Shown here piece by piece: positions 3,496-28,639 of a stretch of DNA of 32,028 bases. Each line of letters opens with the position of its first letter. Position 1 is the first letter of the stretch. The notes beneath the pieces are model-generated. The model saw only the letters and a list, made by a program, of their open reading frames with translations, searched no databases and had not been told where the DNA came from. The DNA is from Bacteriovoracaceae bacterium. GTDB lineage: Bacteria > Bdellovibrionota > Bacteriovoracia > Bacteriovoracales > Bacteriovoracaceae. The position numbers and the translations under genes are program-made. The DNA is taken from contig CANHJD010000015.1 of the NCBI GenBank assembly GCA_947461145.1, positions 1 through 32,028 of the forward strand. Direction: 5' to 3'.

Positions 3496-4974
3496 ATGAT
3501 TTCGGTGAACTTACCCAAAGAAGTCATTTCTGTTCAAAATTTCGTTGGTGGCCAATGGGTTAAAGGCTCTGGCCAAAAAGGCGAAGTTATTAGCCCCTAT
3601 AATCATGAAGTCATCGGAGAATTTTATAACTCCACCTCTCAAGATGTTGAAGCAGCAGTCAAGCTAGCGGTAAAAGCACAAAAAGACTGGGCCAACACTC
3701 CAATCAAAGAACGAACAAAAGTGATGTTTAATTTTCGCAATATTCTTCTTCGTGACCAGGAAGCAATTGCGCACCTGAAGTCTGCAGAGTCTGGAAAAAC
3801 TTTTAGTGAAGGTCTCGCTGGACTCATGAAAGGTATTGAAGTCTTAGAGTACGCCATCTCTCTTCAAAATTTAGACCTCGGTGGAAAGCTTGAAGTTTCT
3901 CGCGGTGTTCAGTGTGAATATCGTCGTGAAGCTCTAGGAATTGTTGCCAATATTACACCTTTTAATTTTCCTGCAATGGTTCCAATGTGGACGATCCCAA
4001 TAGCCTTGACTCTAGGTAATGCTTATATTTGGAAGCCTTCAGAGAAAACACCACTAACATCTCTTAAAATTGCAAATGCGCTGAAAGAAGCTGGTCTTCC
4101 TGATGGACTCTTTAGCGTTATTCAAGGTGGGCGTGAAGCAGTAGAAGCAATTATTGATCATCCATCTATCAAAGCTATTGGATTTGTCGGATCAACTAAA
4201 ATTGCAAAACTTGTTTATGAGCGTGGAAGTCAGCACGGAAAACGTGTGCTTGCGCTTGGTGGAGCAAAAAACCATATTGTACTTCTTCCCGATGCAAATC
4301 TAGATCTAAGCGGAATGGGTATTTCAGACTCTTTTACTGGATGTGCTGGTCAAAGATGTATGGCCGCATCAGTGTTATTAGCTGTTGGTGATGTTGATAA
4401 GCATATTCAAAAAATTATTGAACGTGCTAGTTCATTAAAGCTCGGCCAAGACATGGGAGCCATCATCACGAAAGAACAGGTCGAGTTCCTAAAAAATGCG
4501 ATTGATCGCGCTGAAAAGGCTGGTGCAAAAGTTCTTCTAGATGGAAGGAAAGCCAAGGCACCTGCTGGTTTTGAGGGTGGTCATTGGATAGGCCCAACAA
4601 TTCTAGACAATATACAACCAGGGTCTGAAGCTGCTTCAGTAGAACTTTTTGGACCGGTGATTTCAATAGTCCGTTGTAAAGATATCACAGAAGCCATGGC
4701 AATTGAGAATTCAGTCGATTATGGGAATGCCTGCTCGGTTTTCACTTCTAGTGGGATTCATGCTGAAAGAGTGATTAGAGAGGCTTCAACAGGAATGGTT
4801 GGAGTTAATATTGGTGTTCCTGTTCCTCGTGAACCATTCTCTTTTGGCGGAATAAACGCCTCCAAGTTTGGTCATGGAGATATCACCGGACAACACAGTC
4901 TTGATTTTTGGAGTAACGTTAAAAAAATTACTCTTAAATGGGAAAAACAAGTCGATTCAAATTGGATGTCATAA
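3496..4974 (+). CDS. mmsA: (Methyl)malonate-semialdehyde dehydrogenase, CoA-acylating
   Basis: This 492-residue aldehyde dehydrogenase converts malonate or methylmalonate semialdehyde plus CoA and NAD+ to acetyl-CoA or propionyl-CoA with loss of CO2. Visible landmarks are the Asn157 motif TPFNFP, the cofactor motif GFVGST (229-234), and the catalytic cysteine Cys288 in GQRCMA. The segment LGGAKNH (254-260) takes the place of the general-base ELGGK of ordinary aldehyde dehydrogenases; absence of that glutamate is the hallmark of the CoA-dependent branch. The start at 3496 has AAGGA (3483-3487) 8 bases upstream. It is the first gene of a tight plus-strand operon, 9 bases before URC1. In this setting its likely substrate is the malonate semialdehyde or 3-hydroxypropionate-derived fragment of the uracil ring, rather than valine or inositol breakdown products. 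Family assignment is firm; the specific substrate is inferred. Confidence 0.9.
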   Translation: MISVNLPKEVISVQNFVGGQWVKGSGQKGEVISPYNHEVIGEFYNSTSQDVEAAVKLAVKAQKDWANTPIKERTKVMFNFRNILLRDQEAIAHLKSAESGKTFSEGLAGLMKGIEVLEYAISLQNLDLGGKLEVSRGVQCEYRREALGIVANITPFNFPAMVPMWTIPIALTLGNAYIWKPSEKTPLTSLKIANALKEAGLPDGLFSVIQGGREAVEAIIDHPSIKAIGFVGSTKIAKLVYERGSQHGKRVLALGGAKNHIVLLPDANLDLSGMGISDSFTGCAGQRCMAASVLLAVGDVDKHIQKIIERASSLKLGQDMGAIITKEQVEFLKNAIDRAEKAGAKVLLDGRKAKAPAGFEGGHWIGPTILDNIQPGSEAASVELFGPVISIVRCKDITEAMAIENSVDYGNACSVFTSSGIHAERVIREASTGMVGVNIGVPVPREPFSFGGINASKFGHGDITGQHSLDFWSNVKKITLKWEKQVDSNWMS

Positions 4975-4983
4975 GGAAGAAAT

Positions 4984-6246
4984 ATGCAAAACGAAACTAA
5001 ACCTCACCATGTCATTTTGGCGACTCACTCAAATCTTAAATATAAAGAGAGTCTTCCAATTCACTGGGGAGCAAAAAATCCGATGGAGCGTGGCCCTGTA
5101 GTCGCTTCGCAAACAAACCCAACTCGCCGAAACGCGATTGGAACCCACTCTGGATCTTATACTGTATATCGTGCGCTCTCCATCGCTAGTGGAAAATTTC
5201 CCTCGCAACACAAACCAGATCTCACGAATACTGAGAGCCCAATAAAAATTGGGCCCCATGATTCTTGGTTTGATCCACTTAAAATCGTTTCAATTGATCC
5301 TTGGGGATTAGATCCTCTTGAGAATTTCAAACCTCTCTTTGATAAGGGCTATGATATACGTCCAACGATAGCGGTAACTCAGGCCCGCTTACAGATCCCA
5401 GAAATTTATCAGGCCATTGAAAAAGGCAGACTCAAGCCAGACGGGAAAATCATTCTTGAAAATGGTGATATAAAAATCACTAAAGTTGCTCTTGATCCTG
5501 TATGGTTTCTTCCAGGCATTGCTAAGAGGCTTGGTGTAGAGGAAGGTGATCTTCGTCGCACTCTTTTTCAAGAAACTGGAGGTATGTATCCAGAACTCAT
5601 CACTCGCCCTGACCTAAAAACTTGGCTTCCTCCTATTGGCTCGTCAACAGCGTACATTTTTGGGAATCCTCAAGATCTTGCTAATCCAAAGGTCGAACTT
5701 ACCTGTCGAGTGCATGATGAATGTAATGGTTCAGACGTTTTTGGGTCTGATATTTGTACATGCCGACCGTACCTTATGTGGGGAATTGAGCATGCAGCTG
5801 AAACCGCCCAAAAGGGTGGCGTAGGAATTATTATTTACTACCGGAAGGAAGGCCGTGCACTTGGAGAAGTGACAAAATTTCTCGTCTACAACGCTCGTAA
5901 ACGTCAAACAGGCGGAGATTCTGCTGCAACATATTTCCAACGAACAGAATGTGTAGCAGGTGTTGAAGATGCTCGTTTCCAAGAATTTATGCCAGACCCT
6001 CTCCACTTTTTTGGAATTAAGAAAATCCATAATCTCCATTCAATGTCGAATATGAAGTACGACGCAATCGTAGGCAGTGGAATTGAAGTGGTCAATCGAA
6101 TATCTATTCCTGATGATCTCATCCCGCCTGATGCACAGGTTGAAATGGAAGCAAAAAAAGCAGCTGGCTATTTTACAGTGGACGGTGCGAAATCCAAAGA
6201 AGAGCTGATTAAAGTTAAAGGCCGTGAGATTGAGGAGAAAAAATGA
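4984..6246 (+). CDS. URC1: URC1-type GTP cyclohydrolase II homologue (uracil catabolism)
   Basis: This 420-residue protein has a long N-terminal domain (about 1-225) that riboflavin-pathway RibA lacks, then a GTP cyclohydrolase II core (about 226-375). The core keeps three probable zinc cysteines: Cys247 in HDEC, and Cys258 and Cys260 in DICTC. It also has the RKEGRALG motif (287-294), equivalent to RQEGRGIG in RibA, and a C-terminal substrate segment ending GSGIEVVNRI. This architecture matches URC1 of the URC uracil-degradation pathway known from the yeast Lachancea kluyveri and from many bacteria, where it works with URC4 and uracil phosphoribosyltransferase. All these partners are in this operon, so ring opening of a UMP-derived substrate is more likely than riboflavin synthesis. 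No other rib gene is present. Its last four bases (ATGA) overlap the start of URC4, a sign of translational coupling. Confidence 0.9.
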   Translation: MQNETKPHHVILATHSNLKYKESLPIHWGAKNPMERGPVVASQTNPTRRNAIGTHSGSYTVYRALSIASGKFPSQHKPDLTNTESPIKIGPHDSWFDPLKIVSIDPWGLDPLENFKPLFDKGYDIRPTIAVTQARLQIPEIYQAIEKGRLKPDGKIILENGDIKITKVALDPVWFLPGIAKRLGVEEGDLRRTLFQETGGMYPELITRPDLKTWLPPIGSSTAYIFGNPQDLANPKVELTCRVHDECNGSDVFGSDICTCRPYLMWGIEHAAETAQKGGVGIIIYYRKEGRALGEVTKFLVYNARKRQTGGDSAATYFQRTECVAGVEDARFQEFMPDPLHFFGIKKIHNLHSMSNMKYDAIVGSGIEVVNRISIPDDLIPPDAQVEMEAKKAAGYFTVDGAKSKEELIKVKGREIEEKK

Positions 6247-7460
6247 AGGCAACAGAGGCTGATTTAAATTATATTCTTTCTCCAAAAGCAATCAGGGAAA
6301 AATCTAATTTGCTTTTTGATCTTACACTTAAAGGTAAAACTCATTTTGAGTATCACGAATCTCAACTTTTACCTGTTGTCGATTTTGTTATTGAGGTGAT
6401 TAAGAAAAATTATCCTGATCTAAATATTCCTTTTCACTCACGTTGGGGACACTTCAAGGTGGGAGGAATTGATAGACTTAAGTCACTAAATGATAAAATC
6501 GCCTCTCTCCCAAAGGCAGAGCAAGCAAGAATCAAGCTTGATCTTGTTGTGGTTTCAGTTCTGTTGGATGCTGGAGCTGGGGAAAAGTGGAGCTTCTTTG
6601 AAGAGCAGTCAAAGCAAAGTTTCGGTCGATCTGAAGGGCTTGCTGTCGCAAGTCTTTATATGTTCCTTAATGGTGACTTCTCACATGATCCAAAGCAGCC
6701 TTGGCAGGTAACGGCCCAAGGATTAATGAATCTGACCAAAGAAAAATTAGAAAAAGGGTTTCAAGTAACGGCTTTAAACCCACTCATTGGTGTTGAGGGG
6801 CGTCTGAGTCTTTTAAAAACTTTAGGGGAGACGTTAGCTAAAAATGGCACACATTTTAAGCACTCTAGACCAGGATTTATTTTTGATTTCATGCAATCCA
6901 AGGGCAGCCTCGTTGAGGCCGTAGATCTTTTAAGGGCCGTCCTTGATGGACTTGGCCCAATTTGGCCTGGCCGAATTTCTCTTAACGGAATCAATCTTGG
7001 AGATGTTTGGCATCATTCACTACTCGGATCAAAAGAGGACTTCAACTCACTCGTTCCTTTTCATAAACTTTCTCAATGGATGACTTACTCTCTAATTGAG
7101 CCAATTGAAGAAGCTGGAGTGAAAGTTCAGAATGTTCATTTAATGACAGGTCTTCCTGAATATAGAAATGGAGGCCTGTTACTTGATAAAGGAATCCTGA
7201 CCCTCAAGAATCCAGAACTTTTAACTAAGGCACACAAACCAGACTCGGACCTTATTGTGGAATGGCGTGCTCTTACAATTGTTTTATTAGATAAAATTGG
7301 CGAGCTTGTTCGTCAAAAACTTCACAAATCAGAAGCCGACTTCCCTCTTGCAAAAGTACTGGAAGGCGGAACATGGTGGGCCGGAAGAATTGCGGCGAAA
7401 GAAAAAAGAGCGGACGGCACACCTCCCCTTAAACTTGACTCTGACGGAACTGTCTTTTAG
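6243..7460 (+). CDS. URC4: URC4-type protein (DUF1688), uracil catabolism
   Basis: The 405-residue product shows the features of the DUF1688/URC4 family. The N-terminal part reads AIREKSNLLFDLTLKGKTHF and then HSRWGHFKVGG. Near residue 110 comes DLVVVSVLLDAGAGEKW, and a conserved C-terminal WRALTIVLLDKIGE and GGTWWAGRIAA follow. URC4 is essential for uracil use in the yeast pathway; its exact reaction is not something the sequence reveals. It is thought to act after or together with URC1 in breaking down the opened UMP ring. The gene starts inside the stop of URC1 (ATGA), and upp follows 8 bases after its stop, with the ribosome site AGGAGA at the junction. Length is normal for the family, no frameshift is visible, and no signal peptide is present, so the protein is cytoplasmic. 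Confidence 0.88.
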   Translation: MKATEADLNYILSPKAIREKSNLLFDLTLKGKTHFEYHESQLLPVVDFVIEVIKKNYPDLNIPFHSRWGHFKVGGIDRLKSLNDKIASLPKAEQARIKLDLVVVSVLLDAGAGEKWSFFEEQSKQSFGRSEGLAVASLYMFLNGDFSHDPKQPWQVTAQGLMNLTKEKLEKGFQVTALNPLIGVEGRLSLLKTLGETLAKNGTHFKHSRPGFIFDFMQSKGSLVEAVDLLRAVLDGLGPIWPGRISLNGINLGDVWHHSLLGSKEDFNSLVPFHKLSQWMTYSLIEPIEEAGVKVQNVHLMTGLPEYRNGGLLLDKGILTLKNPELLTKAHKPDSDLIVEWRALTIVLLDKIGELVRQKLHKSEADFPLAKVLEGGTWWAGRIAAKEKRADGTPPLKLDSDGTVF

Positions 7461-7468
7461 GAGAATTT

Positions 7469-8098
7469 ATGACGAAGTTACATATCATTGAGCACCCACT
7501 TCTCAAACACAAACTGGGTTATCTAAGAGATAAGACAACAAACTCAAACGAATTTCGTGCACTAGTTACTGAAATATCAAAAGTTTTAGCTTATGAAGTG
7601 ATGAGGGATTGGAAGGATTTTGATCATCCACAGATTGAAACTCCTCTCGCAAAGATGAAAGTTGATCGTATTGTAAATGTTCCTGTAGTCGTTTCCATTA
7701 TGCGCGCTGGTAACGGGATGCTTGAGGGGGCCCTTTCGATGATCCCTTTTGCCTCTGCAGGATTTATTGGTATTTATCGAGATAAATTCGTGAATACGAC
7801 GGTTGAATATTATTTTAAAATGCCTACTGATATTAAAGGACGGACTGCAATTCTTTGCGACCCTTTAATTGCAACGGGTGATACCATATCGGCAGCAATC
7901 GAGCGCCTGAAAGGTTATGAAGTCAAAAAGATTCAAATCATGTCTATCCTTGTTAGTAGACACGCTCTCAATCGTTTAAATAGTGAACACCCTGACGTTG
8001 AGATTTTTGCGCTTAATATTGAAGAAGAAATGAATAGTGATGGTTATCTTGTTCCAGGTCTTGGAGATGCTGGCGATCGATTATTTCAAACCAAGTAG
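7469..8098 (+). CDS. upp: Uracil phosphoribosyltransferase
   Basis: The 209-residue enzyme converts uracil and PRPP to UMP. The PRPP-binding loop is visible as CDPLIATGDT (130-139), together with the upstream IMRAGNGML segment (77-85) and a C-terminal uracil-binding region around YLVPGLGDAGDR. Length and order of motifs match the Upp family. The gene sits between URC4 and uridine kinase with spacings of 8 and 5 bases. In URC gene clusters upp (URC6 in yeast) supplies the nucleotide substrate. Here it probably feeds catabolism rather than only salvage, though a dual role is possible. The ATG at 7469 has AGGAGA (7460-7465) just upstream. Confidence 0.95.
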   Translation: MTKLHIIEHPLLKHKLGYLRDKTTNSNEFRALVTEISKVLAYEVMRDWKDFDHPQIETPLAKMKVDRIVNVPVVVSIMRAGNGMLEGALSMIPFASAGFIGIYRDKFVNTTVEYYFKMPTDIKGRTAILCDPLIATGDTISAAIERLKGYEVKKIQIMSILVSRHALNRLNSEHPDVEIFALNIEEEMNSDGYLVPGLGDAGDRLFQTK

Positions 8099-8103
8099 TA
8101 TAA

Positions 8104-8730
8104 ATGGATAAAATTAAAATTATTGGTATTGCTGGTGGGAGTGGCTCAGGAAAAACTTATTTTGCCAGAGCGCTTTTTAATAATATAGGCCAAGAGAATT
8201 GTGCCCTGGTTTATCAAGATAATTTCTACATTGATCAATCTTCAAAGTTTGATTTTGATGGAGGCTCAGTCAATTTTGACCACCCATCGTCTTTGGATTT
8301 TGATCTCTTGGCCGAAAAACTGGCCCAGTTAAAATCAGGTAAAGATGCCGACATTCCGATTTACGATTTCGCTACACATTCTCGTAAGTCGGAGACTTAC
8401 CATCAACCAACCAAGAAAATTATCCTAGTTGATGGAATTCTTATTTTTCACCCGGAAAACGTACGTTGCCTTTTCGATGAAATGATCTTTTTTGATACCC
8501 ACCAGGACTTACGATTTAAACGTCGTCTTGATCGGGATGTACATGAGCGTGGAAGAACTCCTGAGGGTGTTCATAATCAATTCTTTAAGCAAGTTAAACC
8601 TATGCATGATCAGTTTGTGGAGCCTTCAAAGGAATTTGCAGACTATATTGTTAAGGACTCTGGTGATTACGAAAAAGTACTAGAAACCTTTTCTGCAAAA
8701 TTTAAATACTTACTAGAAAGTAAGCCATAG
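8104..8730 (+). CDS. udk: Uridine kinase family protein
   Basis: The 208-residue cytoplasmic kinase carries a P-loop GGSGSGKT (11-18) and the uridine-kinase pattern YQDNFYID near residue 40. An acidic nucleoside-binding stretch with FDHPSSLDFDLL follows, and later RRLDRDVHERGRTPE. It phosphorylates uridine (and usually cytidine) to the monophosphate with ATP or GTP. It follows upp by 5 bases, which places a second entry route to UMP in the same operon. That supports UMP, rather than free uracil, as the substrate of the downstream catabolic steps. After its stop there is an 86-base gap without a convincing terminator before the next plus-strand gene. The family is clear; separating it from phosphoribulokinase-like relatives relies on the nucleoside motifs and the neighbours. 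Confidence 0.88.
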   Translation: MDKIKIIGIAGGSGSGKTYFARALFNNIGQENCALVYQDNFYIDQSSKFDFDGGSVNFDHPSSLDFDLLAEKLAQLKSGKDADIPIYDFATHSRKSETYHQPTKKIILVDGILIFHPENVRCLFDEMIFFDTHQDLRFKRRLDRDVHERGRTPEGVHNQFFKQVKPMHDQFVEPSKEFADYIVKDSGDYEKVLETFSAKFKYLLESKP

Positions 8731-8816: not shown

Positions 8817-9323
8817 ATGAAACTTTTGCTAATTTTCTGTGTGGCTTCCCTTAGTCTGTTCGCCTCTGAGTCTTCCCAATTTGATATTTTGCCCGGCAAA
8901 TTACACAAGGGTGGATTTCTTAGTGCCATTTCTAAAATCCAGCCCAATTCTGATCAAATTTTAATTGATATGGTCTATGAAATTAAGAAAAAAGATCTCG
9001 TTCCTGTTCCTAGTCAATTCCTTAAAGGGAATTATCAACAAAAATTACCTTCCATTTTTTTAGATGAAAGAGGTTATTTGGAACTCGAGAAAGTAAAATC
9101 CATGAGACTTGAAGAAGCAAAAATTGTCTACTTGGGACGTGTTACTTTAGGAACGCTCAATGATGCGCATAGAATTCATATCATTCCAGACAATAAAAAA
9201 TCTGAAATGTTTTTAACTTATCACCCAACTGCCCCAGGTCTTGGCTGGGATCAATTGAAACTCGTTCTTCACACGAATCTGCCCATTCTTGGAGATTATG
9301 TCATAGAAGGAAAAGGTAAGTAG
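8817..9323 (+). CDS. Secreted protein of unknown function
   Basis: This 168-residue product begins with a signal peptide (LLLIFCVASLSLFA, cleavage near residue 16). A mature region of about 150 residues with no cysteine follows. The mature part contains alternating hydrophobic and polar stretches suggesting a beta-rich fold, and a conserved-looking HPTAPGLGWDQL segment near residue 140. I do not recognise a family. The ATG at 8817 has AGGAGA (8805-8810) at the proper distance. It lies 86 bases after udk and only 2 bases before the MFS transporter, so it is almost certainly co-transcribed with the transporter and possibly with the uracil-catabolism genes. A periplasmic accessory or binding role for the transporter is a guess from position only. 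Confidence 0.7.
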   Translation: MKLLLIFCVASLSLFASESSQFDILPGKLHKGGFLSAISKIQPNSDQILIDMVYEIKKKDLVPVPSQFLKGNYQQKLPSIFLDERGYLELEKVKSMRLEEAKIVYLGRVTLGTLNDAHRIHIIPDNKKSEMFLTYHPTAPGLGWDQLKLVLHTNLPILGDYVIEGKGK

Positions 9324-9325
9324 AA

Positions 9326-10669
9326 ATGAGTAAAGAAATCCCCCGCAATAGTATATGGACAGTTATTGGTGCTTCCTCGGCCGGAACTCTTATTGAGTGG
9401 TATGACTTTTATATCTTCGGAAGCCTTGCAACGATTATTTCAAATCAATTTTTTCCACAAGGTGACGAGGTTGTAAATTTACTGCTCACTCTTGCCACGT
9501 TTGCCACTGGATTTGTTGTGCGTCCTTTTGGAGCACTCTTCTTTGGTCATTTAGGGGATTTAATCGGAAGAAAATATACCTTCATGGTGACACTTCTTAT
9601 CATGGGGACATCCACTACCCTTATTGGTCTTTTACCAAATTATCAAAGTATTGGTATTTTTGCTCCGATCCTTTTACTTCTTCTAAGACTTCTTCAAGGA
9701 CTTGCTCTTGGTGGCGAATATGGTGGAGCTGCAACTTACGTGGCGGAGCATTCACCAAACAACAAAAGAGGCTTTTATACCAGTTTCATCCAAACAACTG
9801 CAACTCTTGGGCTTTTTGTTTCTTTAGGAGTGATCCTAGCGACAAGACTTACCTTGGGTGAGGATAGTTTTTCAACTTGGGGTTGGCGCGTGCCTTTCCT
9901 CCTTTCAATTTTACTTGTCATCATATCTGTTGTGATTCGTAAAAAATTACATGAATCGCCAGTGTTTCAAGAGATGAAGGCAAATGGTAAAGCTTCAAAA
10001 TCCCCACTAAGAGATAGCTTTTTAAATCCGGAGAATCGGAGAATGGTTATCATTGCACTTTTAGGCGCAACTGCAGGGCAGGGAGTAATCTGGTATACTG
10101 GTCAGTTTTATGCTCTCTTCTATCTTCAAACTGTTTTAAAAATAAACTTCGTTGATGCTAACTATATTATTGCTGCTGCACTTTTTGCAGGAACTCCATT
10201 TTTCATTTTCTTTGGTTGGTTAAGTGACAAAATTGGTAGAAAAAAAATCATGATGACTGGCTGTTTAGTAGCGTCCATTAGTTATATCCCTATCTATAAG
10301 GCCATGGCCTATTATGCTGGATATAATGCTGCGGATCCAGGAATGCCTCTAATGGAAGCAAATCATGTAGCACTGACGATACTTATCTTCATTCAAGTGC
10401 TATTTGTGACAATGGTCTATGGCCCAATCGCAGCATTTTTGGTCGAACTATTTCCAACTAAGATCCGTTACACTTCGATGTCCCTACCCTATCATATTGG
10501 AAATGGCGTGTTTGGAGGCGTGGTGCCCTTAATTGGAACCTACCTTGTCGACAAAACAGGTGATATTCTAGCGGGGCTGTATTTTCCCATAACAATCGCT
10601 GTACTTACACTTATTGTTGGAACGCTTTTTATCAAAGAACAAAAAGAAGTTGATTTAAATTCTAATTAA
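9326..10669 (+). CDS. MFS transporter of the metabolite:H+ symporter type
   Basis: This 447-residue inner-membrane protein has about 12 hydrophobic segments. Its N-terminus reads SSAGTLIEWYDFYIFG, the signature of the metabolite:H+ symporter (MHS) branch, which includes transporters for proline, alpha-ketoglutarate and shikimate. The MFS loop motif GHLGDLIGRK (residues about 74-83) and its second-half counterpart GWLSDKIGRKK are both present. The ATG lies 2 bases after the secreted-protein stop. The substrate cannot be read from the sequence. The location behind the URC genes suggests a pyrimidine, uridine or a small acid product such as 3-hydroxypropionate. Known MHS substrates are mostly organic acids, which slightly favours the product or a related acid. 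The family call is strong, the substrate weak. Confidence 0.9.
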   Translation: MSKEIPRNSIWTVIGASSAGTLIEWYDFYIFGSLATIISNQFFPQGDEVVNLLLTLATFATGFVVRPFGALFFGHLGDLIGRKYTFMVTLLIMGTSTTLIGLLPNYQSIGIFAPILLLLLRLLQGLALGGEYGGAATYVAEHSPNNKRGFYTSFIQTTATLGLFVSLGVILATRLTLGEDSFSTWGWRVPFLLSILLVIISVVIRKKLHESPVFQEMKANGKASKSPLRDSFLNPENRRMVIIALLGATAGQGVIWYTGQFYALFYLQTVLKINFVDANYIIAAALFAGTPFFIFFGWLSDKIGRKKIMMTGCLVASISYIPIYKAMAYYAGYNAADPGMPLMEANHVALTILIFIQVLFVTMVYGPIAAFLVELFPTKIRYTSMSLPYHIGNGVFGGVVPLIGTYLVDKTGDILAGLYFPITIAVLTLIVGTLFIKEQKEVDLNSN

Positions 10670-10678
10670 AATGGATGA

Positions 10679-12031
10679 ATGATAACAAACCTTTTAAAAA
10701 TTCCTTATCTTAGGCTCAAATATAAGTTCCTTCCAAGTAAGGAGCAGCAATTCTGGGCCCAGGAACTTTTAAATTCACAGGGACTTAGTGCTAAAATTGG
10801 TCAGATTCTTGGCCAGGGTAAAGTCACCCAACTACCAAAATCATCCATCACTAGCAAGGAAGCAAAAAAACTTTTCCAAGAAGCTTTTGGAAAAGAAATT
10901 CAAATAAGTGATGAAGTTCTTGCGGCCTCAATGGGGCAAGTTTTTTTCATTAAAATTGAAAATCAAAAATACGCATTAAAGATTCTCCATCCGGGAATAA
11001 AAAAGAAATTACAGAAAGAAATTGAAAATATTCTTCTCCTTGGAGGTTACTTCTCAAAGGCAAAGGGATTTTCATTCAACAAAGATATTTTTAAAAATTT
11101 TCTTACTGAAGTTTTTGAAGAAGAAACTGATCTCGTCAGAGAAGCTCATTTTCAACAGAGATTTTTTGAGATTTTTGAAGCAGATGAAAGGTTCACGGTC
11201 CCTAGAGTGATCAAAGATTACTCAACTAGCTCTTTTTTAACACAAGAAGAAGTCATTTCAAATCTCGCCAAAGACTTAAAAAGTTTTTCACATTTTAATA
11301 TTTTTGACTTTTTCTTGAACTCTCTACTTCAACATGGACTCCTTCATGGAGATCTAAATGATCGTAACTGGGGATTAAGAGAGTCTGGGCAAGTTGCAGT
11401 GTATGACTATGGCTGCTCACAAATTGTCTCAGAAAGAAGAATTAATGGGTTTAAAAAGCTATTAAGTAATAAAGATGTGAAAGAGGGATTCAAGGAATTT
11501 GGAATCAGATTAGAAGCAAGCTCTTTCAAAAATAAGGATCAAGAACTGAGGGATGCACTTTTTGGGCCTCTCTTAAATGCTCCTATATCTCCTTCATGGA
11601 ATTATTCCGAAGAACTCAAAACACTGTATGGAGAAAAGATTAAGGAGCTTAGAGAGTTCACCGATCCATGGGTTTTACTTATGATGAGAAGCCTTTTTTC
11701 ACTTATAAGAGTCTATCAAGATCGAAATATATCGATCCCCTTTAATGATCTTATTGCTCCTTATCTAATACAAAAGGAAGCCTCAATGAAGGCAACACAA
11801 ATTAAGATTAATGTTCTTGAAGATAAAAGTTCTGTTATCTCAATGACCTTACCAATGACGGCCCTAGAGAACCTTGATACTCTTATGCCCCCGAAAGTTT
11901 CTGATAAGATTGAAGAATCGGGCATAAACATAAAAGAAATCATTCAAAAAGTTTATGCCAGTGACTTTGCTCCACAGGACCTATTTAATCTATCAATTGA
12001 GGCAAGAAACTACAGGGTCTGGATTGAGTGA
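10679..12031 (+). CDS. ABC1/AarF (UbiB-like) atypical kinase-fold protein
   Basis: The 450-residue protein shows the ABC1-family landmarks in order. They are the KxGQ motif KIGQ (39-42), the altered P-loop AASMGQV (82-88), a lysine in YALKIL (101) and the EETDLVREA element (148-156). The catalytic loop HGDLNDRN (223-230) and the metal-binding DYG (243-245) complete the set. Family members are ADK/COQ8-like ATPases tied to ubiquinone and other isoprenoid lipid metabolism. A C-terminal region (about 385-450) after the kinase fold has no family I recognise. No membrane anchor is obvious. It begins 9 bases after the transporter stop and is the last gene of the plus-strand run. Its 3' end overlaps the convergent HExxH gene by 22 bases, and no terminator hairpin is visible. 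A link to uracil catabolism is only positional. Confidence 0.85.
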   Translation: MITNLLKIPYLRLKYKFLPSKEQQFWAQELLNSQGLSAKIGQILGQGKVTQLPKSSITSKEAKKLFQEAFGKEIQISDEVLAASMGQVFFIKIENQKYALKILHPGIKKKLQKEIENILLLGGYFSKAKGFSFNKDIFKNFLTEVFEEETDLVREAHFQQRFFEIFEADERFTVPRVIKDYSTSSFLTQEEVISNLAKDLKSFSHFNIFDFFLNSLLQHGLLHGDLNDRNWGLRESGQVAVYDYGCSQIVSERRINGFKKLLSNKDVKEGFKEFGIRLEASSFKNKDQELRDALFGPLLNAPISPSWNYSEELKTLYGEKIKELREFTDPWVLLMMRSLFSLIRVYQDRNISIPFNDLIAPYLIQKEASMKATQIKINVLEDKSSVISMTLPMTALENLDTLMPPKVSDKIEESGINIKEIIQKVYASDFAPQDLFNLSIEARNYRVWIE

Positions 12032-20137: not shown

Positions 20138-20287
20138 CGAAATGTAATCGGAAATTTAACTATTTTATTTAGACAATTAATCAAATCAAATACGATTCAT
20201 TTAATGTCAGATTTTTTGAAGTTCTTTTACCTGACTTTCTCGATCGGTCACCCCAATATACACCCATCAAATATTTTAGGAGCAAGA

Positions 20288-21163
20288 ATGGAAATGAGAA
20301 AGCTTAATGAGCTTAAGGCCACTAACCCTTACTTACGTTTAGGTACTGATGTTTCTGAGCTTGAAAAATCTATTAAAACTTTGGGTTTAATAGCTCCCCT
20401 CGTTATATCTAAAGATAATGTTATTCTTGCAGGGGCCCGTCGTTATCAGGCCATGCTGAACTTAGGCTTCACTGAAACCCCAGTTATGGTTGTTGATGGC
20501 AATGCGCTTGAAAAAGAACTTGTTTCCATTGATGAAAATCTTGTGCGTAAAGATCTTTCAAAAATTGAAATTGAGTCTCATCTTCGAAGAGCGAAGGAAA
20601 TTTACCAAGATTTATTTCCAGAGCCAGAAGTAGAAGACACTAAAATAGAAGATACGAATGTAGAAAAAGTCACTCTGCCTGCTGAGAAATTTCTTACGAT
20701 GGTTTCTGAAAAGACAGGACTTTCTCCAAAGCAAATCCATGAAGCTATTAACCGCGATGAAATGGCGGCTCCAGAAGTAAAAGAGGCGAGAAAGAATGGT
20801 GAACTCTCTTTAAGTCAAACAAATGAAATCGTGAAACTCAAAAAAGAAGATCAGCAAGCAGCGATTGAACATATTAAGGAACTACCAGTTCGCGAGATCA
20901 AAAAATTCGTAAAAATTGCAAAGGTAAAAGGTGTTGAAGAGGCAATTGAAGCCACACCAAGCCTTCCCTATCAAAGAGAATATCAAGAGATTGATCAGGC
21001 GCTAAAAAAGCTCATTAAGAAAATTAAACAACTAAGACTTGAAGGAATATTTCAAACAGATTTTCCCGAAGAGACTCAAAAACTTTTAGAAACGTTTATG
21101 CTTGAAACAAATGAAAACTATATCAATCATGGTTCAAGTCATACTGAAAGTTCTTACCAATAA
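20288..21163 (+). CDS. Orphan ParB/Spo0J-like DNA-binding protein
   Basis: The 291-residue product has a ParB N-terminal nuclease-like domain (about 8-95). It carries ELEKSIKTLGLIAPLVI, then VILAGARRYQAM (the GxRR box) and DENLVRKDLSKIEIE. A helix-turn-helix region follows (about 125-195, KTGLSPKQIHEAINRDEMA), then a lysine-rich coiled-coil-like C-terminus. ParB-like proteins bind DNA and hydrolyse CTP; chromosomal ParB works with ParA. No ParA, parS-like repeats or gidA/rnpA neighbours are seen, so this is probably an orphan regulator or nucleoid protein rather than the main partition protein. I chose ATG 20288 because AGGAG (20278-20282) precedes it and the ParB domain begins there; an in-frame upstream ATG at 20204 has no ribosome site. 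Its 3' end overlaps the convergent protease gene by 41 bases. Confidence 0.85.
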   Translation: MEMRKLNELKATNPYLRLGTDVSELEKSIKTLGLIAPLVISKDNVILAGARRYQAMLNLGFTETPVMVVDGNALEKELVSIDENLVRKDLSKIEIESHLRRAKEIYQDLFPEPEVEDTKIEDTNVEKVTLPAEKFLTMVSEKTGLSPKQIHEAINRDEMAAPEVKEARKNGELSLSQTNEIVKLKKEDQQAAIEHIKELPVREIKKFVKIAKVKGVEEAIEATPSLPYQREYQEIDQALKKLIKKIKQLRLEGIFQTDFPEETQKLLETFMLETNENYINHGSSHTESSYQ

Positions 21164-21971
21164 GACCAACCTCATCAATTACCCACATGATGCAATACAT
21201 GTCTTCACGTGAGCAGTAATTGAAAGGAACGTATTGGTAACCATGATCCCCGCAATCTGCTGACCAGCTATTTTTGATGATGAAATAGCCTCCGCCAGGA
21301 ATCGATTGGTTTAGCCCGTAACCAACTACGCTAACCGCATGTCCCCCACCGTTAGGTGGGGACTTCGGATCTACAACCTTATGACAAGCATAAAGAGAAT
21401 CAGTAACACTCAACCCTAAGTATACAGGTTTATTTTGATCCAAAGCTTTAATCGCTAAATCAACCTTGGTATCAATATAGGGAGCGTTCTTAAGAACTGC
21501 TTTAGCAGATTTCTTGTAACCGTAGTTTGGAAAAATATCACTCATCGGCCAGAATTCTTCATCTGTAATGGCGCCTTTTTTTAGGGCAGCTTTAATGGCC
21601 GATTTTGAGCTGTATTTGCGATACTTATTCCAAAGATGGCGCTCAGACAAATCTGTCGGTCTAATTTGAAAAAGAGCATTTTCCATCGAAGCCGCCAATC
21701 CAAAAGCGGAGCAAGTACTACCAAACTGTCTCTTAGTTGGAGTATCTCTATATCTTAAATCAACTTTAGTTTTTACTGTCGATGGGATGTTATAAACCTG
21801 AATTCTATCTGCATGAGGTCTAACTTCCATCCTCATCATACGATGACGTAGTGGTTGAGAGTTTGTGGTAAAAACTTTAGTTTCAAAGCGCCTTATAATT
21901 TCTTTATGATTAAGAAAATTTTCATCACCAGCAAAAACATTTGCCAGCATAATTGCAGCGAAAAAAACCAT
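21123..21971 (-). CDS. Secreted papain-family (C1A) cysteine protease
   Basis: The 282-residue protein has a short signal peptide (VFFAAIMLANVFA) and a propeptide-like stretch of about 50 residues. The catalytic domain follows: RQFGSTCSAFG with Gln82 and Cys87, the histidine box GGGHAVSVVGYG with His201, and FIIKNSWS with Asn224. The oxyanion glutamine and the Cys-His-Asn triad are thus all present. It would be an exported endopeptidase. I chose ATG 21971 because AAGGAG precedes it with 6 bases between and the signal peptide then starts directly; an upstream TTG at 22007 adds 12 residues and lacks a ribosome site. The gene is single on its strand, with 50 bases between its upstream end and chrA, and its last 41 bases overlap the parB-like gene. 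Confidence 0.9.
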   Translation of the reverse strand: MVFFAAIMLANVFAGDENFLNHKEIIRRFETKVFTTNSQPLRHRMMRMEVRPHADRIQVYNIPSTVKTKVDLRYRDTPTKRQFGSTCSAFGLAASMENALFQIRPTDLSERHLWNKYRKYSSKSAIKAALKKGAITDEEFWPMSDIFPNYGYKKSAKAVLKNAPYIDTKVDLAIKALDQNKPVYLGLSVTDSLYACHKVVDPKSPPNGGGHAVSVVGYGLNQSIPGGGYFIIKNSWSADCGDHGYQYVPFNYCSREDMYCIMWVIDEVGLIGKNFQYDLNHD

Positions 21972-22057
21972 CACAATCTCCTTAAAAGTGAAACTAAATG
22001 TTAACAAAAGATATGTCTTAAAAAAATTAGCATCAACAAATGTAAGAGAAGGTTATT

Positions 22058-25721: not shown

Positions 25722-27041
25722 TTAAAACTTTTTTGAAAGCTGACTATGAGCTTCAATAACTTTTAAACCGCCCTGTTCACCAAAGAAGTTGGTGCAAGCT
25801 TCATAGCCACCGGCCGAATACTCTTCTGGGGTAACAAAATAGGCCAAATGATCATTGGATAAACCAAGAACCCATGCGCTTTCAGCACCCTTTTCTCTGG
25901 CCTGCTCTCTAAGCATCATACCAAGCTCGGTTGTTGCCTCACCAGGCCATGTAAGAAACCAAATGTTTTTAAAATGGATCTGACTAATAATAGTTTTTGA
26001 ACTGATCCACCTCTTAATACCTAGATTAATCGTTTTTGGCATCCATTTCTGCTCAACGCATTTAGAGAGATTAATCTTGGGCTTACCAAGTTCAATTTCT
26101 TTTTGAATCACTTCCCATTCAGGAACAAGGGGCTCCATGCTCGGCCAAAAACTTGAGGCTTGTTTCGCAAAAAGATTACCAAGTTCATGATACTCGACGT
26201 GCGGAGCAATATCCCCTTCTGCACCATTGATAAAAAGAAAATCAGCATCTCTTTTAAGACGAACAAAACTATTTTTTTCTGTTAACAGATCCTGCATTGA
26301 TTTCTCAATGGCACCTGGAACATCAGAGCTAAAATACATATTAGAGGCTCCATGCCAAGTTCCGTGGACAGCAAAGTTTACAATCCCACCACGCCACTCT
26401 CCATCCATTGACCTCGCAAGGAGAAGGTTAGCATCTGGATAAACTGGACGCTCACTTCCTCTTCTATTTCTTACAAGTTCATGAGTTGGAAATGAAATTG
26501 TAAAGAGTTCAGACTCTTGAGCTTTAGACATAGCTTCAGTAACTGTGCTTATGACCTGATCTAAAAAGTGATCATAATAAGCTCTTTGAAAACGATCCAT
26601 GGCCATGATTTCCCAAACAGGATTATTTGCAAGGGCCCCTGGACCAGAGTGTGTGTGGGTGCCTGAGACAATGACACTTGCAGACTCAAATCCCATGGCC
26701 TTAAGACGAGTCATCAAATCACGGTGCATCTCTTTTGTTACACCAATAACATCTAAACTTATAAAGAGTAATTTCTGAGAAGTTTCTCTACGATCTAGAA
26801 ACATCACTTTCGCACGAATAGGATCAATTACACCCTTTGCAGGACGAAACATTCTCCAGTGAGGACGACGTCTAAAAAAATTAAACCATTCTCTTCTCTC
26901 CATACTTCCATACCCGCCAAGAGGAATAAGTTCTTCCTCTTTGGGTGTAATATCTTTTGATGCCAATCCTACCATTAGTGAATTCGCCGCGAAGGCAACA
27001 TGCATTTGTGAAAGGAGTATTAAAAAAATTAATGCCTTCAT
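25722..27041 (-). CDS. Neutral-ceramidase-like secreted protein (short form)
   Basis: The 439-residue protein has a signal peptide (LIFLILLSQMHVAFA) and the N-terminal catalytic fold of neutral/alkaline ceramidases. Visible features are VGLASKDITP near 24, the zinc motif GTHTHSGPG (127-135, His129 and His131) and NFAVHGTWHG (222-231). Further on are PGEATTELG (Glu368) and SNDHLAYFVTPEEY (395-408) with a YE motif at 413. These match the zinc ligands of the family. The loop that in well-studied ceramidases holds the serine proposed as catalytic (GDVSPN) reads GDIAPH (276-281), so that serine is alanine here. The C-terminal Ig-like domain of classic ceramidases is absent. It is the second gene of an operon, 8 bases after the C45-type hydrolase. 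Hydrolysis of an N-acyl sphingoid or other N-acyl lipid is inferred; the Ser-to-Ala change leaves activity uncertain. Confidence 0.8.
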   Translation of the reverse strand: MKALIFLILLSQMHVAFAANSLMVGLASKDITPKEEELIPLGGYGSMERREWFNFFRRRPHWRMFRPAKGVIDPIRAKVMFLDRRETSQKLLFISLDVIGVTKEMHRDLMTRLKAMGFESASVIVSGTHTHSGPGALANNPVWEIMAMDRFQRAYYDHFLDQVISTVTEAMSKAQESELFTISFPTHELVRNRRGSERPVYPDANLLLARSMDGEWRGGIVNFAVHGTWHGASNMYFSSDVPGAIEKSMQDLLTEKNSFVRLKRDADFLFINGAEGDIAPHVEYHELGNLFAKQASSFWPSMEPLVPEWEVIQKEIELGKPKINLSKCVEQKWMPKTINLGIKRWISSKTIISQIHFKNIWFLTWPGEATTELGMMLREQAREKGAESAWVLGLSNDHLAYFVTPEEYSAGGYEACTNFFGEQGGLKVIEAHSQLSKKF

Positions 27042-27049
27042 CAGGGTCC

Positions 27050-28639
27050 TTATTTAACTAAACGATCAATCAGTTTATTATTCTCGAGAAGTTCGACGAC
27101 ATCCCCTTTCATTAAATTAATTCCTGTCATCAAGGTCGACTTCGCTTTAAGATTAATTTTCTCTTCAAACATTTTTGAGTTTGTGAGATGACGTAGAGTT
27201 AGTCCTTGTTTTTCCTTAAACCAGTTTCTAATTCTCAATTCACCATCCACGATTTTGAGATCCGCCAAATAATCTTTAAAAGGAATATTTACATACTCCT
27301 GCTCATAGGCCTGAACGCTCGTCCCATCCTCTAAAATCTTGGCATAAGAAACCCACATATCCCGATCGGTATTTGCATAGACAGCAGTTTGCAGGCTTGT
27401 TCCACGCATTGCCGTCTCTCTTGAAACTGATTCTGCTTGCTCTTTACCAATAAGAACACCTTTCTCTTCAAACGCTACAATCCTATCGTGCTGACCTTTA
27501 TAACGTTGGCCATAAGAGCCTGTTCCTCTTGGATCACCATCTGGGCCATTTGCCGAAAGCTGGTGAGCACGAACGATTGGATCAAAAGAGACGTCTCCAC
27601 GGAAAACAGCATTTTCAATTGGATATCCGTATGGCTCTCCGTTGTAGTTTACAACTAATTCACCTGGATCATTCTCTGTAAACGAGGCAAAGTTTTTTCC
27701 TGACATTTCAATTGAATAACCTGTTTCAGAATCATCTGCATGTCCGCCAGCATCTGCAACAACAAAATTATTTCCATAAGTCGTCGTTCTCATTTGCTTA
27801 AACTTATAAAGCGCTTCCTTTGCTGTAGCAGTTTCAGAGAAAATTTTTCTGACAGATAAATGCCAAGGTGTCGTTACTTTAACGTCTTTTGAAAATGCCC
27901 AAACCTGACCGAGGGCCAATCCGTGTGCATTCATACCTGTGAAAATGCCAACCATACCTGCGAATGCCGCAGTTACAAATGGAATTTTTCCTTCTGGTTT
28001 ATAGACAACAACTAATGGATAGCGCTCCATTCCGACACCAGTAGTAATATCCGTATTTCTAGTTTGAAATGTTTTTCCATCAACAGTTCTATCACCCCAT
28101 ACGGCCATAGAATCACAGTTATGATTAACCCAACTTAAGCCCAGGACTTTTAGAAGAAAAGATTCCTCCGATTTATCACTCTTTTTCCCTGGAAGCTCTC
28201 CAATATTGGCCTTTGCAATTCCCACGACATCAATGAGAGCATTGATGAATGAAACATCATATCTATTTAAGGAAACTTTTGCTTCTTTAGCACCGTCGAC
28301 AATACCTTTGATATGAGTTTTTACATTTGCTGGATATGTTAACCAAAAAACCCAACCCACAGTTTTTCTTAACCAAGTGAAAACAAAGTTTGGAAGTAAT
28401 TTCACTTTAGGCTCTTGGGCCTCACCAATTGCCTTTAAATTAACGACATTCGCTGCAATTTTATCACCGGCAAGATAGCCGTATTGTTTTCCCATTTCAT
28501 ATTCACTGCCTTTCACATGTAGAACGGGTAAGTCTCCGATCATTTCTAAAAATCCATTGCCATAGACTTTTGTGACGGCAGCAGAAGACTGAGAAATGAA
28601 AAATAGGGAAAGGAAAAACGTTAAGAATGTCTTATTCAT
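27050..28639 (-). CDS. Secreted C45-type (acyl-CoA:6-APA acyltransferase-like) Ntn hydrolase
   Basis: The 529-residue protein has a signal peptide (TFLTFFLSLFFISQSSA, cleavage near 20). It shows the N-terminal-nucleophile hydrolase pattern NHNCDSMAVWGDRTVDGKTF (172-191), with Cys175 as candidate nucleophile, followed by RNTDI (194-198). The preceding residues (about 21-174) would form a propeptide removed by self-cleavage before Cys175, as in C45 acyltransferases. Downstream blocks such as FAGMVGIFTGMNAHGLALG also fit the family. At 529 residues it is longer than typical C45 members. Ntn hydrolases of this kind hydrolyse or transfer N-acyl amide bonds. It is the first gene of an operon with the ceramidase-like gene 8 bases later. 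The start at 28639 has no clear ribosome site. Confidence 0.8.
   Translation of the reverse strand: MNKTFLTFFLSLFFISQSSAAVTKVYGNGFLEMIGDLPVLHVKGSEYEMGKQYGYLAGDKIAANVVNLKAIGEAQEPKVKLLPNFVFTWLRKTVGWVFWLTYPANVKTHIKGIVDGAKEAKVSLNRYDVSFINALIDVVGIAKANIGELPGKKSDKSEESFLLKVLGLSWVNHNCDSMAVWGDRTVDGKTFQTRNTDITTGVGMERYPLVVVYKPEGKIPFVTAAFAGMVGIFTGMNAHGLALGQVWAFSKDVKVTTPWHLSVRKIFSETATAKEALYKFKQMRTTTYGNNFVVADAGGHADDSETGYSIEMSGKNFASFTENDPGELVVNYNGEPYGYPIENAVFRGDVSFDPIVRAHQLSANGPDGDPRGTGSYGQRYKGQHDRIVAFEEKGVLIGKEQAESVSRETAMRGTSLQTAVYANTDRDMWVSYAKILEDGTSVQAYEQEYVNIPFKDYLADLKIVDGELRIRNWFKEKQGLTLRHLTNSKMFEEKINLKAKSTLMTGINLMKGDVVELLENNKLIDRLVK

What the first reader, a model, noticed from the sequence alone, without database searches (positions are those of the whole stretch)
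3496..8730. Compact URC uracil-catabolism operon with its own three-carbon oxidation step and two entry kinases
Seen: mmsA-type dehydrogenase, URC1, URC4, upp and udk in one strand with spacings of 4-base overlap to 9 bases. Known: URC1, URC4 and uracil phosphoribosyltransferase are the core of the URC uracil-degradation route first described in Lachancea kluyveri, which starts from a UMP-level substrate. Inference: udk adds uridine, and mmsA would turn a malonate-semialdehyde-type fragment into acetyl-CoA, making a complete carbon-and-nitrogen route from nucleic-acid bases. In a predator-like lineage this would let the cell eat prey pyrimidines. The chemistry of URC4 remains poorly understood, and this gene set points to a CoA-dependent end step.
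Basis: partly seen in the sequence, partly recalled or inferred. Interest (0 to 1): 0.75.

Follow-up and report, generated by a model that had tools for sequence, protein, structure and literature searches.

The report
Predator-lineage operon turning uracil into acetyl-CoA
Five neighbouring genes, kept together in most of the related Bdellovibrio-lineage stretches examined, look like a way to burn the uracil of RNA for carbon and energy, and the predicted fold of one of them suggests how a poorly understood step of that pathway works.

Summary
In detail: mmsA, URC1, URC4 (DUF1688), upp and udk lie head to tail at 3496-8730. Among 99 related loci, mmsA directly precedes URC1 in 75 of 83 with enough sequence, and all five genes are together in 69 of 82. 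Six of 6 Myxococcota loci also carry mmsA first; 0 of 36 judged loci from cyanobacteria and alpha-/gammaproteobacteria do. The URC-linked MmsA form one clade, grouped with MmsA from reductive uracil operons, two of them in same-genus genomes lacking URC. This favours malonate semialdehyde as substrate. Corrections: upp is not a kinase, and the 'complete nitrogen route' fails. Urease was found in 1 of 368 genomes of the phylum and in none of the 150 with URC4; no urea carboxylase passed its cut-off. Nitrogen probably leaves as urea. New lead: two URC4 models from separate alignments match only Qng1/DUF2419, a queuosine-5'-phosphate nucleosidase, in the PDB (E about 1e-8; next hit 0.15 or worse). 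URC4 is therefore probably an N-ribosyl hydrolase giving urea and ribose-5-phosphate. A new variant of the known URC pathway; no reaction was assayed.

The parts
3496..4974 (+). mmsA: CoA-acylating (methyl)malonate-semialdehyde dehydrogenase, URC-linked clade; proposed malonate semialdehyde + CoA + NAD+ -> acetyl-CoA + CO2 + NADH
   Evidence: TIGR01722 458.6 bits; the ten best PDB matches are MMSDH/MSDH; GQRCMA motif in 76 of 76 URC-linked sequences of the phylum set; tree
4984..6246 (+). URC1: uridine-nucleotide ring-opening cyclohydrolase (GTP cyclohydrolase II superfamily)
   Evidence: NF005536 717.5 bits; 7eev/7ej3 E 3.3e-173; C247, C258, C260 invariant in 157 URC1 sequences (some genomes twice) and aligned to the cysteines of the own RibBA
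6243..7460 (+). URC4/DUF1688: proposed N-ribosyl hydrolase acting on N-(5-phosphoribosyl)urea
   Evidence: PF07958 507.3 bits; AF2 model pLDDT 95.2; the 11 PDB chains with E <= 0.001 are all DUF2419/Qng1; repeated with a second model from a separate alignment
7469..8098 (+). upp: uracil phosphoribosyltransferase (URC6 role), uracil entry
   Evidence: TIGR01091 223.4 bits over cut-off 208.35
8104..8730 (+). udk: uridine/cytidine kinase, nucleoside entry
   Evidence: NF004018 230.7 bits over cut-off 180; follows upp in 90 of 98 loci with room

Best explanation
The operon is a URC-type pyrimidine-catabolic unit that runs uracil and uridine to acetyl-CoA, ribose-5-phosphate and urea. Upp and Udk bring uracil and uridine to UMP. 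URC1, a cyclohydrolase related to RibA, hydrolyses the ring of a uridine nucleotide (probably UTP) at its C4-N3 and C6-N1 bonds, giving malonate semialdehyde (C4-C5-C6) and N-(5-phosphoribosyl)urea. URC4, with the fold of the queuosine-5'-phosphate nucleosidase Qng1, hydrolyses the N-ribosyl bond and releases urea and ribose-5-phosphate, which can be recycled to PRPP. MmsA oxidises malonate semialdehyde with CoA and NAD+ to acetyl-CoA, CO2 and NADH. As no known urea-degrading enzyme was found in this genome or in the other URC4 genomes of the phylum, the unit here serves carbon, energy and ribose recovery and discards nitrogen as urea, unlike the yeast pathway. SHOWN by computation: gene identities, linkage, clade structure, URC4 fold match, no urease or urea carboxylase at the sensitivity used. 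INFERRED: every reaction, which bonds are cut, the substrate of URC1, urea loss, prey RNA as source.
For: Gene identities. mmsA directly before URC1 in 75 of 83 phylum loci with room, all five genes in 69 of 82; 6 of 6 Myxococcota loci. URC4 and MMSDH co-occur: 138 of 150 URC4 genomes against 46 of 218 without URC4; by genus 53 of 56 against 21 of 125. URC-linked MmsA are one clade (100/99) that groups with a six-row clade of MmsA, four of which lie in reductive uracil operons (joint 100/100, midpoint root); in the same genus, G083 has mmsA-dihydropyrimidinase-PreA and G085 NCS1 permease-mmsA-dihydropyrimidinase, and both lack URC4. No HIBADH in 26 of 26 genomes of the genus. Urease 1 of 368, urea carboxylase 0 of 368 over cut-off, while urease rang in 32 of 40 URC genomes reached through. 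URC4 fold match twice. Literature seen as passages: URC1 and URC6 give 3-hydroxypropionate and ribosylurea, URC4 turns ribosylurea into urea (PMC7530994).
Against: No enzyme was assayed, and MmsA enzymes can take both substrates (PMC6572756, passages). mmsA is not beside URC1 in 8 of 83 loci. 12 of 150 URC4 genomes gave no MMSDH match, only part of them explained by contig ends. Two genomes without URC4 carry URC-clade mmsA (G069 in an ABC-transporter setting, L241; G333, 56% complete, L252). Other reductive-operon MmsA fall outside the clade, near the valine type. The URC4-Qng1 match is by fold at 14-16% identity; catalytic residues were not mapped and PF10343 does not match. The urea-carboxylase search scored only two candidates per genome. 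The genome is an 86%-complete assembly of 212 contigs.
Confidence: 0.72

Rival explanations
1. MmsA in this operon works on methylmalonate semialdehyde from valine (or on an inositol-derived fragment) and its place beside URC genes is incidental.
For: TIGR01722 is named for methylmalonate semialdehyde, and characterised MmsA accept both substrates (PMC6572756 passages).
Against: Linkage in 75 of 83 loci and in a second phylum; no HIBADH match in 26 of 26 genomes of the genus; the tree separates it from the rows I labelled valine-type, of which one (L246) was checked: acyl-CoA dehydrogenase and HIBADH-type domains beside mmsA.
Confidence: 0.08
2. The operon is a nitrogen-scavenging URC pathway as in yeast, with urea broken down by an enzyme not recognised here or missed in the assemblies.
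For: Canonical URC serves nitrogen nutrition (PMC7530994 passages and one section); urease rang in 32 of 40 other URC genomes.
Against: Urease in 0 of 150 URC4 genomes of the phylum, 93 of which are at least 90% complete and at most 5% contaminated, and no urea carboxylase over cut-off.
Confidence: 0.12
3. The unit mainly controls pyrimidine nucleotide pools and salvage (upp, udk); URC1, URC4 and MmsA drain excess uridine nucleotides and detoxify malonate semialdehyde rather than feed the cell.
For: upp and udk are salvage enzymes; malonate semialdehyde is reactive (general knowledge).
Against: Does not exclude feeding; a same-genus genome without URC4 carries mmsA in a reductive uracil operon with a nucleobase permease (G085), which looks catabolic.
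Confidence: 0.15
4. URC4 shares the Qng1 fold but acts on another bond or substrate, for example a queuosine-like nucleotide.
For: Fold match only; substrate pockets not compared.
Against: Beside URC1 in 98 of 99 loci; yeast work places URC4 at ribosylurea to urea (PMC7530994 passage).
Confidence: 0.15

Closest known systems
URC pathway of Lachancea kluyveri (URC1, URC4, URC6, URC3/5 urea amidolyase, URC8)
   Same: URC1, URC4 and uracil phosphoribosyltransferase homologues; proposed three-carbon fragment plus ribosylurea
   Different: mmsA in the operon where yeast ends in 3-hydroxypropionate; udk added; no urease or urea carboxylase found
Bacterial reductive pyrimidine (Pyd) clusters with MSDH (PMC7332683, figure legend seen)
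   Same: malonic semialdehyde dehydrogenase in a uracil operon; such operons also occur in same-genus genomes without URC4
   Different: there the ring is reduced first and opened via beta-alanine; here hydrolytic opening at the nucleotide level is proposed
UTP cyclohydrolase (PDB 7eev, 7ej3, labelled GTP cyclohydrolase II; the link to the 2021 ACS Catal paper is recalled)
   Same: URC1 matches over residues 7-417 at E 3.3e-173
   Different: substrate of the window's URC1 not tested
Qng1/DUF2419 queuosine-5'-monophosphate nucleosidase
   Same: fold of URC4 over nearly its whole length, TM 0.60-0.65 by query, 0.74-0.79 by target
   Different: 14-16% identity, no PF10343 match, another leaving group proposed (urea)
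MmsA/IolA (methyl)malonate semialdehyde dehydrogenases
   Same: family score over cut-off, GQRC motif
   Different: a clade of its own tied to URC operons

Membership tests
URC pathway | URC1 homologue distinct from RibA | tested here: met
   717.5 bits to NF005536, 44 bits to ribA; separate RibA match of 252 bits elsewhere in the genome
URC pathway | URC4 (DUF1688) next to URC1 | tested here: met
   PF07958 507.3 bits; adjacent in 98 of 99 loci
URC pathway | uracil phosphoribosyltransferase (URC6) | tested here: met
   TIGR01091 223.4 bits
URC pathway | urea-degrading step (urea amidolyase, or urease in its place) | tested here: not met
   urease 0 of 150 URC4 genomes, 1 of 368 in all; urea carboxylase 0 of 368 over cut-off. 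So the URC core is claimed, not its nitrogen-releasing end
URC pathway | ribosylurea and three-carbon products | not testable with these tools
   needs assay
CoA-acylating MMSDH (TIGR01722) | score over curated cut-off | tested here: met
   458.6 against 448.5
CoA-acylating MMSDH (TIGR01722) | GQRC active-site motif (its role is recalled) | tested here: met
   GQRCMA in 76 of 76 URC-linked and 7 of 7 other URC-linked sequences; also in 5 of 5 rows labelled valine-type and only 5 of 13 labelled reductive-operon, so it does not tell the substrate
CoA-acylating MMSDH (TIGR01722) | preference for malonate semialdehyde | not testable with these tools
   needs kinetics
GTP cyclohydrolase II superfamily | three zinc-ligand cysteines | tested here: met
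   C247, C258, C260 invariant in 157 URC1 sequences and aligned to the own RibBA; their role as zinc ligands is recalled
Qng1/DUF2419 | overall fold | tested here: met
   all 11 PDB chains with E <= 0.001 are DUF2419, in two models from separate alignments
Qng1/DUF2419 | match to sequence family PF10343 | tested here: not met
   hmmscan of the window's URC4 gave DUF1688 only; so it is not filed as a Qng1 member, only as likely to work like one
Qng1/DUF2419 | catalytic residues | not tested
   no residue-level superposition was available; pdb_via was not on the machine

The most novel reading that the evidence does not exclude
In Bdellovibrionota, uracil is burned through a carbon-and-energy form of URC that discards nitrogen as urea: URC1 cuts UTP into malonate semialdehyde and phosphoribosylurea, URC4 is a Qng1-fold phosphoribosylurea N-ribosylhydrolase that regenerates ribose-5-phosphate, and a dedicated MmsA clade makes acetyl-CoA. 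Hydrolytic (URC) and reductive routes, each with its own MmsA, replace each other even within one genus.
Probability: 0.5. Interest if true: 0.72.

Novelty: new variant of a known kind. Interest (0 to 1): 0.6.

Why it matters
A fold match to one enzyme family only, itself a 5'-nucleotide N-ribosyl hydrolase, turns the question into a single assay: phosphoribosylurea in, urea and ribose-5-phosphate out. The conserved mmsA and the lack of known urea enzymes change the likely meaning of URC in this phylum from nitrogen supply to carbon and energy supply, which would fit cells that live on the RNA and protein of prey and have nitrogen to spare. It would also give a better name to proteins now labelled 'GTP cyclohydrolase II' (NF005536) and 'DUF1688'.

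Tried and rejected
Downstream genes as part of the unit: the small gene 8817-9323, the MFS transporter 9326-10669 and the ABC1 kinase 10679-12031 are not conserved right after udk (relatives of the small gene stand one gene further on in L043 and L048), so they were left out. Regulatory RNA and tRNA in the window: none. Promoter and terminator patterns did not exceed shuffles (13 against 13.3, 6 against 5.5). A shared upstream motif: in several same-genus loci, not in the window. Mutual exclusion of URC and dihydropyrimidinase: 5 genomes of 368 have both (odds ratio 0.12, p 6e-8), but by genus it is not significant (7 of 56 against 30 of 125, p 0.11), so only replacement within a genus is used. 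Sequence link of URC4 to Qng1: none among PDB sequences at E <= 10; PF10343 in 0 of 40 URC genomes, where no control rang either, so that call shows nothing by itself. The 27%-identical 'mmsA' hit downstream of some loci is, in the one checked (L079), a PutA-like proline enzyme followed by a pyrroline-5-carboxylate-reductase-like gene, not a second MmsA.

Literature. No held paper with the term queuosine also has DUF1688 or URC4 among the 6 listed; PMC11130926 holds DUF1688 0 times; one search listed 20 of 39 papers with DUF2419 or Qng1, of which I looked at passages of two. A link of URC genes to mmsA was not seen in the listings (20 of 120 shown). The library is open-access only, so this does not show that either point is unpublished. 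The 2008 URC paper, the 2021 UTP cyclohydrolase paper and the Qng1 structure paper were not read; look-ups of 10.1093/nar/gkac1231, PMC6816092, 10.1039/D2CP01740G and PMID 18550080 found them not held.
Full report
WHAT IS THERE. Five genes on one strand, 3496-8730, with spacings of 9, minus 4, 8 and 5 bases: mmsA (TIGR01722 458.6 bits, cut-off 448.5), URC1 (NF005536 717.5 bits), URC4/DUF1688 (PF07958 507.3 bits), upp (TIGR01091 223.4 bits) and udk (NF004018 230.7 bits). NF005536 is labelled 'GTP cyclohydrolase II', but the own genome has a separate RibA match (252 bits, contig C180) while URC1 scores only 44 bits. The genome is an assembly of 2.65 Mb in 212 contigs, 86% complete, presumably a MAG. 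A same-genus genome (G099) has a contig of the same number and length as the Bacteriovoracaceae contig of L137, so the organism very probably lies in or near Bacteriovoracaceae, phylum Bdellovibrionota.

CONSERVATION. DUF1688 is in 150 of 368 genomes of the phylum, 93 of them at least 90% complete and at most 5% contaminated. I took stretches from 98 of the other 149 such genomes, 99 loci, chosen by me to cover genera: 52 of the 56 genera with a match by my count, and all 16 other same-genus genomes. URC1 is beside URC4 in 98 of 99; mmsA (over 45% identity) is directly upstream of URC1 in 75 of the 83 loci with at least 1.6 kb before URC1; upp follows in 97 of 98 and udk in 90 of 98 with room; all five are together in 69 of 82 with room on both sides. 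The eight without linked mmsA are L072, L079, L085, L106, L109, L110, L121 and L123; all eight genomes have an MMSDH elsewhere, of URC-clade type in three (L234, L235, L236). The genes after udk are not conserved.

BEYOND THE PHYLUM. mmsA precedes URC1 in 6 of 6 Myxococcota loci (Archangium, Corallococcus, two Myxococcus, two MAGs), without udk; it does so in 0 of 36 others with room, and 9 could not be judged. The sample is biased to the closest relatives. In 40 genomes behind these 80 loci, MMSDH is present somewhere in 35, so presence is general and linkage is what sets the two phyla apart; that both are rich in predators is general knowledge.

WHICH SUBSTRATE FOR MmsA. In the phylum URC4 and MMSDH (E <= 1e-115, at most four candidates scored per genome) co-occur: 138 genomes have both, 12 URC4 only, 46 MMSDH only, 172 neither. 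Of the 12, at least five (G084, G101, G215, G323, G324) are cut by a contig end at or before mmsA. By genus: 53 of 56 against 21 of 125. Of the 46 with MMSDH but no URC4, 30 have a dihydropyrimidinase; one more, G314, has URC1 right after mmsA at a contig end (L251). In four same-genus genomes without URC4 (G083, G085, G092, G095) the mmsA is 51-52% identical to the window's. In G083 it is followed by dihydropyrimidinase and a PreA-type protein; in G085 it is preceded by an NCS1-type permease (Pfam over cut-off, TIGR00800 below) and followed by dihydropyrimidinase; G092 has a dihydropyrimidinase on another contig, none was found in G095, and in these two the contig ends soon after mmsA.

TREE. 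A maximum-likelihood tree of 68 MMSDH (76 URC-linked sequences thinned to 26, other groups whole) puts all 26 URC-linked rows of the phylum, the 6 Myxococcota rows, Fluviispira (L164, a long branch) and ten unlinked rows in one clade of 43 (100/99). It groups with a six-row clade (G040, G063, G083, G085, G092, G095; joint 100/100, midpoint root), four of whose members lie in reductive uracil operons by coordinates. The rows I labelled valine-type (L246 checked: acyl-CoA dehydrogenase and HIBADH-type domains beside mmsA) and the other reductive-operon MmsA lie on the other side of the tree. HIBADH gave no match at E <= 1e-20 in 26 of 26 genomes of the genus, while 9 of 14 control genomes rang, 1 over cut-off. 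A uracil-derived C3 fragment, malonate semialdehyde, is therefore the best substrate. Against: two of the ten unlinked rows are from genomes without URC4 (G069, in an ABC-transporter setting; G333, 56% complete), reductive-operon MmsA are not one clade, and known MmsA take both substrates (PMC6572756, passages).

NITROGEN. Urease alpha was found in 1 of 368 genomes of the phylum (G356, not a URC4 genome), and urea carboxylase over its cut-off in 0 of 368; 359 had weaker matches, the listed ones covering only the first 422-461 of 1201 positions, as biotin carboxylases would (two candidates scored per genome). The urease search works: it rang in 32 of 40 URC genomes reached through (17 of 17 cyanobacteria, 5 of 6 Myxococcota, 9 of 12 alphaproteobacteria, 1 of 1 Cellvibrionaceae, 0 of 3 Legionella, 0 of 1 Fluviispira). 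Yeast URC ends in urea amidolyase (PMC7530994, passages and section 16).

URC4. An AlphaFold2 model of the window's URC4 on 45 phylum sequences (mean pLDDT 95.2) finds 11 PDB chains at E <= 0.001, all of the queuine salvage enzyme family DUF2419 (Qng1), E 1e-8 to 1e-7, probability 1.00, TM 0.60-0.65 by query; the next hit has E 0.15 and probability 0.05. A second model, of Planktothrix URC4 on 19 sequences, none from Bdellovibrionota (mean pLDDT 92.1), gives the same 11 chains (E 1e-8 to 4e-7) and then nothing below E 0.77. Sequence searches do not see it. Qng1 acts on queuosine-5'-monophosphate and frees the base (PMC11592518, PMC11130926, passages). By analogy URC4 should cut the N-ribosyl bond of phosphoribosylurea, which fits its reported place, ribosylurea to urea (PMC7530994, passage). 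Invariant acidic residues in the 45-sequence alignment are E131, D254, E306, D315 and D401; their match to Qng1's catalytic residues was not tested.

URC1. C247, C258 and C260 are invariant in 157 URC1 sequences (both locus sets, some genomes twice) and align with the cysteines of the own RibBA; C323 is invariant and specific to URC1. The only close solved relatives are 7eev and 7ej3, deposited as GTP cyclohydrolase II. I recall them as UTP cyclohydrolase; [quoted passage not shown] If the substrate is UTP, loss of pyrophosphate as in RibA (recalled) would leave the 5'-monophosphate that a Qng1-like URC4 would accept. That is inference.

MECHANISM AND VERDICT. Uracil/uridine -> UMP (upp, udk) -> UTP (other kinases, assumed) -> malonate semialdehyde + phosphoribosylurea (URC1) -> urea + ribose-5-phosphate (URC4); malonate semialdehyde -> acetyl-CoA (MmsA). 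The operon and its conservation are shown; all reactions are inferred. It is a new variant of the URC pathway, with a URC4 mechanism that can be tested directly. MSDH in reductive pyrimidine clusters is already in print (PMC7332683, figure legend), so MSDH as a uracil-pathway end step is not new in itself; its conserved tie to URC was not seen in my listings, which cover open-access papers only.

Noticed in passing
L104:4515-5759 (genome G222): A second, divergent DUF1688 protein (about 40% to the window's) stands without URC1 or upp, between an RF3-like gene and CheX/HD-domain genes.
   Followed up: partly
L079:10382-15431; by length and position also L062, L063, L069, L084, L085: A PutA-like proline dehydrogenase/aldehyde dehydrogenase and a pyrroline-5-carboxylate-reductase-like gene (named by Pfam in L079 only) follow the URC operon in several loci.
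   Followed up: partly
L200:6397-14047 (Cellvibrionaceae MAG): Nucleoside transporter, URC1, URC4, upp, udk, an aldehyde dehydrogenase 37% identical to the window's MmsA (not among the MMSDH matches) and an aldose-epimerase-family gene in one row: perhaps another way to build a nucleoside-to-C3 URC unit.
   Followed up: partly
L162:6445-7485 (Planktothrix) and L208:6080-7318 (Microvirga): A CobW-type GTPase next to URC1, and a metalloenzyme-superfamily protein (possibly phosphopentomutase) upstream of URC1.
   Followed up: no
upstream of mmsA in L037, L039, L040, L046, L050, L052: A shared stretch around TGTA(A/T)TAGCGTTA lies shortly before mmsA in these same-genus loci but not in the window.
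   Followed up: no
window 8817-9323 and 9326-10669: A small gene without family match and an MFS metabolite/H+ symporter-like gene (385.9 bits to TIGR00883, below its 443.45 cut-off) after udk, not conserved right there.
   Followed up: yes
window 21123-22007 (-), 25722-27041 (-), 27050-28639 (-): Papain-family protease, neutral-ceramidase-like and AAT-family proteins, all with signal-like N-ends by eye; possible secreted hydrolases.
   Followed up: no
window 20204-21163 (+): ParB N-terminal-domain protein with no parA noticed by eye among the neighbouring ORFs.
   Followed up: no
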